Positions 41,412-53,775 of a DNA stretch of 57,986 nt are shown here, piece by piece. The translations under genes and the position numbers were made by a program. The DNA is from Myxococcales bacterium (GTDB taxonomy: Bacteria; Myxococcota; B64-G9). The notes under the pieces were generated by a model. The model worked only from the letters and a program-made list of their open reading frames with translations, made no database searches and was not told the DNA's origin. The stretch lies in the NCBI GenBank assembly GCA_012798435.1, contig JAAZNF010000075.1, positions 1 through 57,986 of the forward strand, in the 5' to 3' direction. Within the stretch, counting starts at the first letter, position 1, and every line of letters starts with the position of its first letter.

Positions 41412-42656
41412 TCAGCGCTGGCCCACGAACTTGCCGTAGCTGAACACGCCCTCCTGGCGCTTGCCGTCCTTCATGACCAGCACGCCGTCGCCGTGGGGCT
41501 TGCCGTCCATCCAGTCGCCCTCGTAGGTCCACTGCGGGGTGACCGCCTTCCCCTTTCCGTAGCGCAGGTCGTTCTTCCACTCGCCCTCGTAGCGCGAGCC
41601 GTCCTTGAGGACCTCGACGCCCTTGCCCTGGCGCTTGCCCTGCACGAAGTCCCCCTCGTACATGCTGCCGTCGGGCTGGGTGAGCTTGCCCCGGCCGTGC
41701 ATCTTGCCGTCCTGCCACTCGCCCTCGTAGCACATGCCGGCCTTGGTGGTGAGCATGCCGCGCCCGTGGGTCTTGCCGTTCTTCCACTCGCCCACGTAGC
41801 GCGTGCCGTCCTTGGAGGAGAGCGTTCCCTTGCCCGAGCGCACGCCGCGCTCGAACGTCCCCTCGTACACCACGCCGCGCGCCGAGACTTCTTTTCCTTC
41901 GCCGTGGCGCTCGCCGCCTTGGAAGGCGCCGCTGTACACCGTTCCGTCCGCGAGCGTCTCTTTGCCCTGGCCAGATCGCACGCCGTTCTCGAACGAGCCC
42001 TCGTAGCGGCTGCCGTCTTTTCGCACCTCTCTGCCCGGTCCGGTGAGGCGGTCGTCCTTCCAGGTGCCGGTGCGCTGGGTGCCGTCGGCCAGCGTCTCCG
42101 TGCCCGGTCCCTGGCGCAGGCCCTTCTCGAACACGCCCTCGAAGCGCTCGCCGCGGGGGGTGGTGAGCACGCCCTTGCCGTGCCGCTCGCCGGACTTCCA
42201 CTCGCCGGTGTAGCTCGTGCCGTCGGGCAACGTCTCGCTGCCCTGGCCCTCGCGCTCGTCGTTCTTCCACTGGCCCTGGTATTTGAGCCCGGTCGGGGTG
42301 GTGAGCGTCCCCTGGCCATGGTGCCGGTCGCGCTCCCACTGGCCGGTGTAGGTGGTCCCGGTGGAGGAGACCTCACTGCCCTGGCCGTGGCGCAGGCCGG
42401 CTTTCCACTGCCCGGTGTAGCGGCTGCCGTCGGCCGACTTCAGCGTGCCCTCGCCCTCGGGGAGCCCGTTGATGAAGCCACCCTCGTACTCCTCGCCCTG
42501 CGGTCCCTTGGCCTTGCCCGGGCCGGCGGCCAGGCCGTTCTGGCAACTACCTTCCAGGTGCGTCCAGCCCTTCATGGACTGGTGCAGCTTGCAAGCAGGC
42601 TCGGCGGCCGAGGCCGCGAGCGGAAAAGACAGCAAGAACGCGATCGAGATCCTCAT
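41412..42656 (-). CDS. Secreted MORN-repeat protein
   Basis: 414 residues with a signal peptide (cut near ASA/A, about 18). Sixteen consecutive MORN repeats of about 23 residues (pattern YxGxWxxGxxHGxGxxxxxDGxx) run from about residue 55 to the end, the last one short. MORN repeats form flat beta ribbons that bind lipids or proteins. ATG 42656 overlaps the stop of the small Cys protein gene (ATGA). Function unknown. A much longer open frame continues upstream across other genes but is an artefact of codon bias. Confidence 0.88.
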   Translation of the reverse strand: MRISIAFLLSFPLAASAAEPACKLHQSMKGWTHLEGSCQNGLAAGPGKAKGPQGEEYEGGFINGLPEGEGTLKSADGSRYTGQWKAGLRHGQGSEVSSTGTTYTGQWERDRHHGQGTLTTPTGLKYQGQWKNDEREGQGSETLPDGTSYTGEWKSGERHGKGVLTTPRGERFEGVFEKGLRQGPGTETLADGTQRTGTWKDDRLTGPGREVRKDGSRYEGSFENGVRSGQGKETLADGTVYSGAFQGGERHGEGKEVSARGVVYEGTFERGVRSGKGTLSSKDGTRYVGEWKNGKTHGRGMLTTKAGMCYEGEWQDGKMHGRGKLTQPDGSMYEGDFVQGKRQGKGVEVLKDGSRYEGEWKNDLRYGKGKAVTPQWTYEGDWMDGKPHGDGVLVMKDGKRQEGVFSYGKFVGQR

Positions 42657-42877
42657 GGCATTCCCCCATGGACGATACGGATCCCCCAGATGGGACAGCG
42701 CGAGAGGGGCAGGCGGCAGGACCGCTCGCATCCCGGGCAATGTTGGCCAGCGCGCTCGAGTAGCCATAGCACGCCCGCCCCGCCGAGGCCGAGCCCGAAC
42801 ATAAGACGAAACAGCTCGCGCCGGCTGAGCCGATGGACGTCCGAGGATGCCTGGGGTTCTGGGTTGTGCACGCTCAC
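42653..42877 (-). CDS. Small Tat-like, Cys-rich membrane protein
   Basis: 74 residues, start GTG 42877 or GTG 42871 (GGGG upstream). An S-R-R-x-L-F motif precedes a hydrophobic helix (LMFGLGLGGAGVLWLL), as in twin-arginine signals or signal anchors. The remaining 30 residues contain C-P-G-C, a further Cys and C-P (four Cys), perhaps a metal or Fe-S site. Its stop overlaps the MORN gene, so both are translated together. Not recognised as a named family. Confidence 0.6.
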   Translation of the reverse strand: MSVHNPEPQASSDVHRLSRRELFRLMFGLGLGGAGVLWLLERAGQHCPGCERSCRLPLSRCPIWGIRIVHGGMP

Positions 42878-42927
42878 CCCTCTGGCGGAAATCTACTCGA
42901 TCGCGGGCCGGATGGGAAGTGAAACGC

Positions 42928-42956
42928 TTGCGGTGGCCGGGCGGGCCGGATATGTT
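42928..42956 (+). promoter_or_regulatory. Promoter of the ERG2/sigma-1-like gene
   Basis: TTGCGG (42928-42933), 17 nt, TATGTT (42951-42956); predicted start near 42963, leader about 24 nt with GGGAGAAA before ATG 42987. Confidence 0.55.
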
Positions 42957-42986
42957 CTCACCCGAAACCGCCCAAGGGAGAAACTC

Positions 42987-43685
42987 ATGCCAAGACCCAT
43001 CTTCGACCCCGACGTCGTCCACCAGTGCGCGCTCGCCGCCATCGGCAAGCCGAAGCCCGCCATGTTCGAGGTCTTCGCCGACGCCATGGAGGAGCATTAC
43101 CCCGGCGTGCTCGACCGCGGCCAGCCCTGGATCTACTCCATCGCCGGCGGGGCCATGATCCAGATGAAGCTCTATTACGCCTCGCTGTACGAATACATCA
43201 TGATCTGGGGCACGCCCATCGGTTCCGAGGGGCACTCGGGGCGGCACTTGTGCGGCTTCTGGGACACGGTGATCGACGGCGAGACCTGGTACTACGGCGA
43301 GGGGCAGTTCGAGAAGACGGTGTACCGGCCGGGCGACCGCATCTACGTGGGACCGGGCCAGGCCCGGGCCATGAACTTCACGAACGGGGTGTGGGCGGTG
43401 GAATACGAGCGCGGCCCGCTGCCCCTGTCGATGCCGTTCGGGCTGGCTGACGAGATTTTCTCCTGCCTCGACTTCTGCACCGCGGCCCAGACGGTGAGCC
43501 TGTACACCGACCTGGTGTGCCGGCACTTCGGGCGCACCCTGGGGGCGGTGCCGGGCGCCGGGGGACTGGTGCGAACCGTCACCGGCGCGGTGGGTGGCCT
43601 GGCGCGCAAGATCACCTTCGCCTTGCAGCCGCCGCCCGAGGTGGAGGCCATCCCCAAGGAGAACATCCGCTGGTTGTGCCGGTAG
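42987..43685 (+). CDS. ERG2 / sigma-1 receptor-like protein (sterol C8 isomerase family)
   Basis: 232 residues. The whole length follows fungal ERG2 and animal sigma-1 receptor: FDPDVVHQ near the start, AGGAMIQMKLYYASLYEYIMIWGTPIGSEGHSG split over residues 53-85, YRPGDRIYVGPGQA (113-126) and WAVEYERGPLPLSMPFGLADEIFS (136-159). By recall of the human protein, its two pocket acids D126 (ISDTIISG) and E172 (VEYGRG) correspond here to D93 (FWDTVIDG) and E139 (VEYERG), both kept. Unlike the eukaryotic proteins it has no N-terminal membrane helix before FDPD. The C-terminus (183-232) is a Gly-rich extension. In fungi the enzyme moves the sterol double bond from C8 to C7. In a bacterium the substrate is unknown, but a 5-alpha-reductase operon lies 9 kb away. 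A short non-coding gap separates it from the S46 gene. Confidence 0.85.
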   Translation: MPRPIFDPDVVHQCALAAIGKPKPAMFEVFADAMEEHYPGVLDRGQPWIYSIAGGAMIQMKLYYASLYEYIMIWGTPIGSEGHSGRHLCGFWDTVIDGETWYYGEGQFEKTVYRPGDRIYVGPGQARAMNFTNGVWAVEYERGPLPLSMPFGLADEIFSCLDFCTAAQTVSLYTDLVCRHFGRTLGAVPGAGGLVRTVTGAVGGLARKITFALQPPPEVEAIPKENIRWLCR

Positions 43686-52030: not shown

Positions 52031-52792
52031 CTACAGCAGACCAGGCAAGATGGCGCGTCGCTCGGGCGGGTAGTCCGGGAAGGTCTTGCGGTACCAGCGG
52101 TGGTGGGCGAGCGCGCGCGGCACCAGGTTGCAGGCGGTCCAGGCGAAGAACACCCAGGCGGCGGGCGAGGCGGAGGCCAGCGCGAAGCCGAGCCACTCCA
52201 CGAGCTCTCCCAGGTAGTTGGGCGAGGACACCCAGCGGTACAGCCCGCCGCGGGGGATGCGGTAGCCGCTCTCGCCCGGGCCGCGCAGGCGCCGCAGCAG
52301 AGCGTCGCTGTGCTGGTTGATGGCGAAGCCCACGGCGAAGATCAAAGCGCCGGCGATGAAATTCGGGCTCGTCAGCCAATCGTCGGGCAGGATCGGGCCG
52401 AAGGCGAACAGGTAGCGGCCGTTGAGGTAGCCGTTGAACAGGTTGAAGACGAAGCCGAAGGCGGCGATGGCGAGCGGCATGGGCTTGCTGGCCGGGGAGA
52501 GGCGGAACGGGAAGACGAAGGTCCGGTTGAGGTAGTGCAAAAGCCACAAGCAGAGCAGCACCACGGCCGGCAGGTTGCCGTGCCGATCGCCCACGATGAA
52601 CAGCGCGACCATCAGGGCCGGGGAGGGGATCTCCATGAGCACCCAGCCGAAGCGCGCCGGCAGGGTCGGTCCCCAGTGGGGCCGAAGGTGCCGCCCGTAA
52701 GGCGCGGTGATGAACAGCAGCGAGACGAAGATGACGACCCCGCTCGCCAGGAACCCCCACAGCACGATCTCGAAGATCTCGCGCTCGATCAT
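52031..52792 (-). CDS. Steroid 5-alpha-reductase (SRD5A-type membrane reductase)
   Basis: 253 residues, about seven hydrophobic segments. The match to animal SRD5A1/2 runs along the whole protein as I recall those sequences: MEIPSPAL, LHYLNRTFVFPFRL, FNGYLNGRYL, DDWLTSPNF, INQHSDALLRRLRGPGE, YRIPRGGLYRWVSSPNYLGE and HHRWYRKTFPDYPPERR. The SRD5A2 catalytic pair E57 and Y91 correspond to E54 and Y87 here. It should reduce a delta-4 double bond of a 3-oxo-steroid, or a related enone, with NADPH. Isoprenylcysteine methyltransferase-like relatives lack these motifs. Two nt downstream of the SDR gene. Confidence 0.9.
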   Translation of the reverse strand: MIEREIFEIVLWGFLASGVVIFVSLLFITAPYGRHLRPHWGPTLPARFGWVLMEIPSPALMVALFIVGDRHGNLPAVVLLCLWLLHYLNRTFVFPFRLSPASKPMPLAIAAFGFVFNLFNGYLNGRYLFAFGPILPDDWLTSPNFIAGALIFAVGFAINQHSDALLRRLRGPGESGYRIPRGGLYRWVSSPNYLGELVEWLGFALASASPAAWVFFAWTACNLVPRALAHHRWYRKTFPDYPPERRAILPGLL

Positions 52793-52794
52793 CT

Positions 52795-53775
52795 CTATTT
52801 ACCTTCTTGCTCGCGGAACCAGGCCACCGTGTCGCGGATGGTCTCCGAGAGCGGCCGGGCGGAGTAGCCCAGCTCGCGCTCCGCCTTCTTTCCGCTGATG
52901 CGCCGGTTGCTGTGGCGCAGCACGTCCAGGGATTCGAGGGTGTAGATAGGGCGGCGCTTGCGCAGCCGGCACCAGGCGGTGACGAAGGGCGCGCCGACGC
53001 CGGCCAGCCACAGGGGCGCCGCGTGCTGCGGCACCTTCACCCCGCCGAATTCGGCGACCCAGCGGGCCAACTCCGCGAACGGCGCCCAGCGGCCGGGCAG
53101 CAGGTAGCGCTCGCCGCGCCGGCCCTTCTCCTCGGCGGCCATGGCCCCGGCCACCACGTCGCGCACGTCCACCCAGTCGAAACCGCCGTCCACCAGCATG
53201 GGGAACTTGCCGCGCAGCAGGCCCAGGATGGCCTCGCCTATGGGTGAGGGCTTGAAGTCCAGCGGCCCGATCACCGAGGTGGGGTTGACGATCACCGCGT
53301 CCAGCCCTTGTCGCACGCCCGCCATGACTTCGGCCTCGCCGGCCACCTTGGAGCAGTCGTAGGGCAGACCCTCGCCGGGCGCCACGCACTCGCGCGCCTC
53401 GTCGAGGACTTCGTCGCGCGGCTCCTGGCGAAAGGCGTGGATGGAGGAGAAGTGCACCAGGCGCCGCACCTTGTGTTTCAGGCAGGCGGCGACGACGTTG
53501 CAGGTGCCCTCGCGGTTGATGCGGTCGATCATCCCGCCCAGGTTGCCGGACACCCAGATCTTGGCCGCCAGGTGGTACACCACGTCGGCGCCCTCGAGGG
53601 CACGTTCGATGCAGCTCGGGTCCAGAACGTCGGCCCGGACCACCGCAAGGTCCAGGCCGTCCACCGCCCGGGTGTCGGAGTGGACGATGGCGCGGACCTT
53701 TCGGCCGCGCGACAGCAACGCCCGCACCAGGTTGCCGCCCACGTGTCCCGAGGCGCCCGTCACCGCGACCAGCAT
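52795..53775 (-). CDS. Extended SDR oxidoreductase (3-beta-HSD/DFR/epimerase-like)
   Basis: 326 residues from ATG 53775 (AAAGGAGATCGC upstream). Rossmann motif TGASGHVGG (G7, G10, G13), HFSS (110-111) and Y139-x3-K143 in PYDCSKVAGE form the SDR catalytic site. The middle part (NPTSVIGPLDFKPSPIGE) is like dihydroflavonol reductases, 3-beta-hydroxysteroid dehydrogenases and sugar epimerases. Coupling with a 5-alpha-reductase makes a steroid or sterol 3-oxo/3-hydroxy step attractive but unproven. Confidence 0.85.
   Translation of the reverse strand: MLVAVTGASGHVGGNLVRALLSRGRKVRAIVHSDTRAVDGLDLAVVRADVLDPSCIERALEGADVVYHLAAKIWVSGNLGGMIDRINREGTCNVVAACLKHKVRRLVHFSSIHAFRQEPRDEVLDEARECVAPGEGLPYDCSKVAGEAEVMAGVRQGLDAVIVNPTSVIGPLDFKPSPIGEAILGLLRGKFPMLVDGGFDWVDVRDVVAGAMAAEEKGRRGERYLLPGRWAPFAELARWVAEFGGVKVPQHAAPLWLAGVGAPFVTAWCRLRKRRPIYTLESLDVLRHSNRRISGKKAERELGYSARPLSETIRDTVAWFREQEGK

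What the first reader, a model, noticed from the sequence alone, without database searches (positions are those of the whole stretch)
42987..43685. Bacterial ERG2/sigma-1-receptor homologue with both pocket acids kept and no membrane anchor
The translated protein follows ERG2/sigma-1 along its whole length and keeps D93 and E139, matching sigma-1 D126 and E172 as I recall them. The N-terminal membrane helix of the eukaryotic proteins is absent and a Gly-rich C-terminal tail is added. A possibly soluble prokaryotic ERG2 would be useful for understanding sterol isomerisation and the origin of the sigma-1 receptor.
Basis: partly seen in the sequence, partly recalled or inferred. Interest (0 to 1): 0.8.

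Follow-up and report, generated by a model that had tools for sequence, protein, structure and literature searches.

The report
Sigma-1-like protein in steroid gene module
A bacterium that appears unable to make sterols carries a cousin of the human sigma-1 receptor and yeast sterol isomerase ERG2, near genes for a steroid 5-alpha-reductase and a steroid-dehydrogenase-like enzyme, and the same set recurs in unrelated bacteria, which suggests a pathway that remodels steroids taken from other organisms.

Summary
Window 42987-43685 encodes a 232-aa ERG2/sigma-1 homologue (Pfam PF04622, E=4.5e-46; PDB sigma-1, E=1.4e-29). D93 and E139 align with sigma-1 D126 and E172. The AlphaFold model (pLDDT 93) superposes on human sigma-1 at 1.3-1.4 A over about 175 residues. 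There is no N-terminal membrane helix, but the 'Gly-rich tail' is a predicted extra helix and the membrane-facing lid helices remain, so 'soluble' is unproven. The interpretation needs changing. The protein belongs to a bacteria-only clade, sister to a clade holding eukaryotic ERG2/sigma-1 plus a few bacterial proteins. The host genome (97% complete) has no detectable oxidosqualene/hopene cyclase, squalene epoxidase or ERG24, so it is probably not a step of de novo sterol synthesis. Relatives in four phyla usually sit beside a short-chain dehydrogenase and/or an extended SDR plus a steroid 5-alpha-reductase. The last two lie 8.3 kb away in this window (52031-53775). All three partner types resemble steroid enzymes. 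Best explanation: a steroid double-bond isomerase (perhaps delta5 to delta4) in a module that converts exogenous stenols or 3-keto-steroids to 5-alpha-reduced products. The reaction is inferred, not shown.

The parts
42987..43685 (+). ERG2/sigma-1-like cupin protein, 232 aa, with D93 and E139
   Evidence: PF04622 E=4.5e-46; sigma-1 5hk1 E=1.4e-29; AlphaFold model pLDDT 93, Foldseek to sigma-1 6djz/5hk1 E 4e-19 to 1e-18, rmsd 1.3-1.4 A
42974..42980 (+). ribosome-binding-site-like sequence AAGGGAG, six bases before the ATG
   Evidence: read from the sequence
   Evidence: AlphaFold/DSSP H192-212, block pLDDT 94-98 with 89 towards the end; hydrophobic moment 0.41
52031..52792 (-). steroid 5-alpha-reductase homologue (SRD5A family), 253 aa
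   Evidence: PF02544 E=8.6e-50; PDB 7C83 PbSRD5A E=1.6e-76, human SRD5A2 7BW1 E=7.6e-47; only PF02544 match in the host genome
52795..53775 (-). extended SDR, hydroxysteroid-dehydrogenase-like, 326 aa; first gene of a two-gene unit with the 5-alpha-reductase (2-bp gap)
   Evidence: PF01370 2.2e-30 and PF01073 3Beta_HSD 2.6e-21; HpnA 241 bits and SdmB 223 bits, both under their cut-offs; catalytic Ser, Tyr139 and Lys143 kept

Best explanation
The gene encodes a bacterial member of the ERG2/sigma-1 cupin family that works as a steroid double-bond isomerase. Its partners are an SDR, an extended SDR (3-beta-HSD-like) and a 5-alpha-reductase, which together form a steroid-remodelling module in bacteria that mostly do not make sterols. 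Most likely order of steps: a dehydrogenase oxidises the 3-beta-OH of an exogenous stenol; the ERG2-like protein moves the ring double bond (best guess delta5 to delta4) with the D93/E139 pair as proton relay; the 5-alpha-reductase reduces the delta4-3-ketone with NADPH; the other dehydrogenase reduces the ketone to a 5-alpha-stanol. Shown here: homology, fold, pocket acids, intact catalytic residues of the partners, recurrent gene neighbourhood, absence of sterol-synthesis markers in the host. Inferred: the substrate, the isomerase activity, the double-bond positions and the direction.
For: Homology and fold. D93 and E139 invariant in 28 homologues. Neighbours: an SDR is adjacent in 16 of 22 close relatives; 5AR-SDR-ERG2-ExtSDR are contiguous in L011; ERG2, ExtSDR and 5AR are adjacent in L012, L021 and L038; an ExtSDR is adjacent in the more distant L063/L064. 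The window has ERG2 and the ExtSDR-5AR pair 8,346 bp apart (chance about 0.003 for single copies in 5.05 Mb). Closest solved relatives of the partners: PbSRD5A and human SRD5A2, an SDR chain that I recall as Collinsella 7-beta-HSDH (5fyd/5gt9), and NCBIfam SdmB/7betaHSDH below cut-off. Co-occurrence: 8 of 8 Myxococcota genomes with a full-length ERG2 match have a strong 5AR against 47 of 193 overall, and 5 of 5 ERG2-bearing Chloroflexota relatives against 4 of 200 sampled others. No cyclase, squalene epoxidase or ERG24 in the host. The homologous sigma-1 pocket binds progesterone and DHEA-sulfate in crystals (PMC11224282). PbSRD5A reduces progesterone (PMC7815742).
Against: No activity is known for any member of this clade. 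In the window the ERG2 gene is not in an operon with the pair, and the best SDR partner homologue (42-44% identity) lies on another contig. Termite-gut genomes with SDR-ERG2, and Amycolatopsis L018, have no strong 5AR. The ExtSDR-5AR pair also occurs widely without ERG2, so ERG2 is not needed for it. The 5AR QEY motif reads MEY in many of these proteins, the window's included. Progesterone binding by sigma-1 does not need E169/E172 (PMC11224282). The co-occurrence p-values ignore relatedness of the genomes.
Confidence: 0.5

Rival explanations
1. It is a conventional sterol C8-C7 isomerase (ERG2 function) acting on sterols made by the cell or taken up.
For: Membership of PF04622, conserved pocket Glu; three relatives (G010, G019, G021) do have squalene epoxidase and a cyclase; bacterial sterol clusters with C-8 isomerisation homologues are reported (PMC10202945).
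Against: The host has no detectable cyclase, squalene epoxidase or ERG24; the protein is outside the ERG2/sigma-1 clade; acids around the pocket differ from yeast ERG2 (yeast sequence recalled). The bacterial proteins that group with ERG2/sigma-1 are other sequences, one of them next to an ERG24 gene (L118).
Confidence: 0.17
2. It is a non-catalytic steroid-binding or carrier protein, like sigma-1, that hands substrate to the membrane reductase or dehydrogenases.
For: Same fold and pocket as sigma-1, which binds steroids without known catalysis; membrane-facing helices retained.
Against: Strong conservation of the acid pair and of a clade-specific pocket set (G90, W92, D97, Y102) suits an active site; the gene is paired with a reductive pathway that needs a delta4 bond.
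Confidence: 0.13
3. The module acts on a non-steroid isoprenoid, for example alpha-saturation of polyprenols in the manner of SRD5A3 plus an SDR.
For: The SRD5A family also includes polyprenol-type reductases (established knowledge), and most hosts lack sterol synthesis.
Against: The window reductase is closest among solved structures to PbSRD5A, a proven steroid reductase (260 bits), and SRD5A2 (163 bits) (no SRD5A3 chain was among the hits, so that subfamily was not compared); an ERG2-like cupin has no known role in the polyprenol route.
Confidence: 0.1
4. The genomic association is incidental: ERG2-like and 5AR genes are separately acquired accessory lipid genes.
For: Many 5AR-ExtSDR pairs lack ERG2; some ERG2 loci have no partner nearby (L018, L023, L036).
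Against: Adjacency in several divergent lineages with different gene orders (L011, L012, L021/L038, L063/L064) and SDR adjacency in 16 of 22.
Confidence: 0.1

Closest known systems
Sigma-1 receptor (SIGMAR1; PDB 5HK1, 6DJZ, 8W4B)
   Same: Same cupin barrel plus alpha4/alpha5 lid (rmsd 1.3-1.4 A, 34% identity over about 175 residues to the human protein), D126/E172, Y103 and the GHSGR motif equivalents
   Different: No N-terminal membrane helix, extra C-terminal helix, Gly in place of E123, bacterial, sits among steroid-enzyme genes
Fungal sterol C8-C7 isomerase ERG2
   Same: Same Pfam family; FDP start motif, conserved pocket Glu
   Different: About 29% identity; outside the clade that holds ERG2/sigma-1; yeast ERG2 (recalled) has Phe at the D126 position; host has no detectable sterol pathway
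Bacterial ERG2-proper (L035, L118, L119 here; Calothrix and methanotroph C-8 isomerase homologues in the literature)
   Same: Bacterial PF04622 proteins
   Different: L035, L118 and L119 group with ERG2/sigma-1 and keep the extra acid at the E123 position; L118 lies next to ERG24; the literature proteins were not compared here
Gut cholesterol-to-coprostanol pathway (SpiR, IsmA, 5-beta-reductase)
   Same: Same chemistry as proposed: oxidation, delta5-4 isomerisation, delta4 reduction, 3-keto reduction
   Different: There isomerase and dehydrogenase are one SDR protein and reduction is 5-beta; here a separate cupin protein and a 5-alpha-reductase
PbSRD5A / SRD5A2 steroid 5-alpha-reductases
   Same: Window 52031-52792 is a full-length homologue (E=1.6e-76 to 7C83) keeping catalytic Glu and Tyr
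   Different: Gln of the QEY motif is Met

Membership tests
Pfam PF04622 (ERG2_Sigma1R) | Profile match above the curated cut-off | tested here: met
   157 bits, cut-off 21
Pfam PF04622 (ERG2_Sigma1R) | Cupin barrel with sigma-1-type lid helices | tested here: met
   Model pLDDT 93; all Foldseek matches down to E 1.4e-17 are sigma-1
Pfam PF04622 (ERG2_Sigma1R) | Pocket Glu (E172) and, in sigma-1, Asp (D126) | tested here: met
   E139 and D93, invariant in 28 homologues
Sigma-1 receptor / eukaryotic ERG2 | N-terminal transmembrane helix | tested here: not met
   Protein starts at the post-helix FDP motif; no hydrophobic stretch
Sterol C8-C7 isomerase ERG2 | Groups with ERG2/sigma-1 in a tree | tested here: not met
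   Sister bacterial clade with L063/L064, 99/99 and 100/100 support; only three eukaryotic sequences, one recalled, and long branches
Sterol C8-C7 isomerase ERG2 | Host makes sterols | tested here: not met
   No PF13243, PF08491 or PF01222 match in the host genome, 97% complete
Sterol C8-C7 isomerase ERG2 | Delta8 to delta7 isomerase activity | not testable with these tools
   needs enzyme assay
Steroid 5-alpha-reductase (window 52031-52792) | PF02544 and catalytic Q-E-Y | tested here: inconclusive
   PF02544 169 bits, Glu and Tyr kept, Gln replaced by Met

The most novel reading that the evidence does not exclude
The four genes are a stenol-to-5-alpha-stanol pathway of non-sterol-making, largely anaerobic bacteria, in which a sigma-1-type cupin is a new class of steroid delta5-4 isomerase. 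This would supply genes for the microbial formation of 5-alpha-stanols in soils, sediments and termite guts, and a catalytic relative for the sigma-1 receptor.
Probability: 0.25. Interest if true: 0.85.

Novelty: new variant of a known kind. Interest (0 to 1): 0.6.

Why it matters
Sigma-1 is a drug target whose catalytic ancestry and natural ligand are debated; a bacterial relative tied to steroid enzymes gives a tractable system to ask whether this fold catalyses steroid chemistry beyond C8-C7 isomerisation. The module would also give marker genes for microbial hydrogenation of sterols to 5-alpha-stanols, widely used as geochemical and faecal markers, for which my limited searches of the held literature turned up no genes in such bacteria.

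Tried and rejected
Viral contigs gave no relative and plasmids none. L024 (Oligoflexia) was a chance match: it is a carbamoyltransferase. NCBIfam has no model matching the ERG2-like or 5AR proteins. The extended SDR as a hopanoid HpnA was considered and set aside: below cut-off (241 against 368 bits) and the host has no cyclase. Fusion of the ERG2 frame to the long upstream open frame (730 aa) was rejected: it runs antisense over the MORN-type gene, while homology and the ribosome-binding site start at 42987. Recent transfer from a eukaryote was considered and is not supported by the tree, although few eukaryotic sequences were available. S46 peptidase, MORN-type protein and histidine kinase neighbours in the window gave no functional clue.

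Full report
Observation. Window 42987-43685 is an open frame of 232 codons with ATG at 42987 and AGGGAG six bases upstream. Pfam gives one family, PF04622 ERG2_Sigma1R, 157 bits, E=4.5e-46; it is the only such gene in the host genome. In the PDB only sigma-1 receptors match convincingly (E=1.4e-29 to 1.7e-27). D93 and E139 align with D126 and E172; Y70 aligns with Y103. In 28 aligned bacterial homologues both acids are invariant.

Structure. AlphaFold with 28 sequences gives mean pLDDT 93. Foldseek returns sigma-1 receptors for all of the top 42 hits, E 3.7e-19 to 1.4e-17, those to human sigma-1 at rmsd 1.3-1.4 A over about 175 residues. D93 lies in strand 90-97 and E139 in strand 135-142; since the superposition is close and D126 hydrogen-bonds E172 in human sigma-1 (PMC10094450), the two acids should meet in the pocket. 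I could not measure the distance directly. The protein has no N-terminal membrane helix, but helices 149-159 and 163-185 correspond to the membrane-facing alpha4/alpha5, and in several relatives this region is strongly hydrophobic. The 'Gly-rich tail' is a third helix, 192-212, mostly at pLDDT about 90 or more. Solubility is therefore open.

Kinship. Close relatives (61-73% identity) occur in Myxococcota, Dehalococcoidia, Actinomycetota and Spirochaetota, including MAGs whose names point to fens, sediments and, by my inference from the isolate names, termite guts. The family is rare: 9 of 195 Myxococcota, 3 of 201 Chloroflexota, 5 of 396 Actinomycetota and 3 of 198 Spirochaetota genomes. The window protein falls in a bacterial clade (100/100; 99/99 with L063/L064) apart from a clade holding sigma-1, yeast ERG2 and the bacterial L035, L118, L119 (one search agrees). 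Within the window's clade phyla are mixed, which suggests horizontal transfer. Caveats: the yeast ERG2 sequence was recalled from memory (it scores 316 bits to PF04622), only three eukaryotic sequences were used, and some branches are long. Near the pocket the clade has Gly where sigma-1 has E123 and yeast ERG2 has Asp, while yeast ERG2 has Phe at the D126 position.

Sterol synthesis. The host genome (97% complete) has no match to the cyclase domain PF13243, squalene epoxidase PF08491 or ERG4/ERG24 PF01222. Of 33 genomes with PF04622 tested for squalene epoxidase, only G010/G127, G019 and G021 have a clear one, plus a weak match in G301. So the gene is probably not part of de novo sterol synthesis in this host or in most relatives. 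A few others without squalene epoxidase (G003, G013, G022) do carry an ERG4/ERG24-type reductase, which fits modification of sterols from outside.

Neighbourhood. A clustering of frames across the relatives showed an SDR adjacent to the ERG2-like gene in 16 of 22 loci. In L011 (Myxococcaceae) the order is 5-alpha-reductase, SDR, ERG2-like, extended SDR, contiguous. In L012 (Rugosimonospora africana) and L021/L038 (Anaeromyxobacter-type) the extended SDR and 5-alpha-reductase are adjacent to ERG2-like on the other strand. In Dehalococcoidia the set is split into SDR-ERG2 and extended SDR-5-alpha-reductase pairs. In the window itself the extended SDR (52795-53775) and 5-alpha-reductase (52031-52792) form a two-gene unit 8,346 bp from the ERG2-like gene, and that reductase is the only PF02544 gene in the genome; chance of such closeness is about 0.003. 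The window's best SDR partner homologue lies on another contig (42-44% identity).

Partners. The 5-alpha-reductase matches PbSRD5A (7C83) at E=1.6e-76 and human SRD5A2 at 7.6e-47; catalytic Glu and Tyr are kept, the supporting Gln is Met. PbSRD5A reduces progesterone (PMC7815742). The extended SDR scores best to HpnA and SdmB, under both cut-offs, and also matches 3Beta_HSD in Pfam; Ser, Tyr and Lys are kept. The SDR of L002 has as nearest solved relative 5fyd/5gt9, which I recall as Collinsella 7-beta-HSDH.

Co-occurrence. All 8 Myxococcota genomes with a full-length ERG2-like match (one of them, G025, of the ERG2-proper type) have a strong PF02544 gene, against 47 of 193 overall; the partial match in G200 has none. 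All 5 ERG2-bearing Dehalococcoidia have one, against 4 of 200 others sampled (p values, uncorrected for relatedness). The presumed termite-gut genomes, G001, G017 and G021 lack a strong one. The extended SDR-5-alpha-reductase pair also occurs without ERG2, so ERG2-SDR looks like an added step.

Mechanism. The proposal is oxidation of a 3-beta-hydroxyl, double-bond shift by the ERG2-like protein with D93/E139 as proton relay, delta4 reduction by the 5-alpha-reductase, and 3-keto reduction. The gut coprostanol route has the same logic with other proteins (SpiR, PMC13079761). The sigma-1 pocket binds progesterone and DHEA-sulfate in crystals, although progesterone binding did not need E169 (PMC11224282). 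The isomerase step, the substrate and the direction are inference; overall confidence 0.5, the specific delta5-4 stanol route 0.25.

Novelty. Bacterial C-8 isomerase homologues in sterol-making bacteria are known (PMC10202945, PMC13277303). I found no description, within limited searches of the held literature, of this clade or of its association with 5-alpha-reductase and HSD-like genes in bacteria without sterol synthesis. I rate it a new variant of a known kind.

Noticed in passing
L118:1399-2151 (genome G918, Spirochaetota): A bacterial PF04622 gene of the ERG2/sigma-1 clade, with a hydrophobic C-terminal stretch, directly next to an ERG4/ERG24 sterol reductase gene (414 bits).
   Followed up: partly
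L072-L074, L078-L080 (Actinomycetota genomes G491, G741, G777): Divergent PF04622 proteins next to cytochrome P450 genes; in two of them the D126 position is Lys.
   Followed up: partly
L103-L113 and L115 (Myxococcota and Chloroflexota genomes without PF04622): An extended SDR plus SRD5A-type reductase pair is widespread in bacteria without the ERG2-like gene, a candidate steroid-reducing unit of its own.
   Followed up: partly
L082:4370-5551 (genome G200): A 394-aa protein with a weak, partial PF04622 domain (55 bits, residues 186-340) of unknown meaning.
   Followed up: no
window 41493-43685 +: A spurious 730-aa open frame runs antisense across the MORN-type gene into the ERG2-like gene; automatic annotation could misplace the start.
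   Followed up: yes
G013, G003, G022: Genomes with the ERG2-like gene, no squalene epoxidase and no substantial cyclase match, yet an ERG4/ERG24-type reductase (126-155 bits); G013 is a Spirochaetaceae MAG.
   Followed up: no
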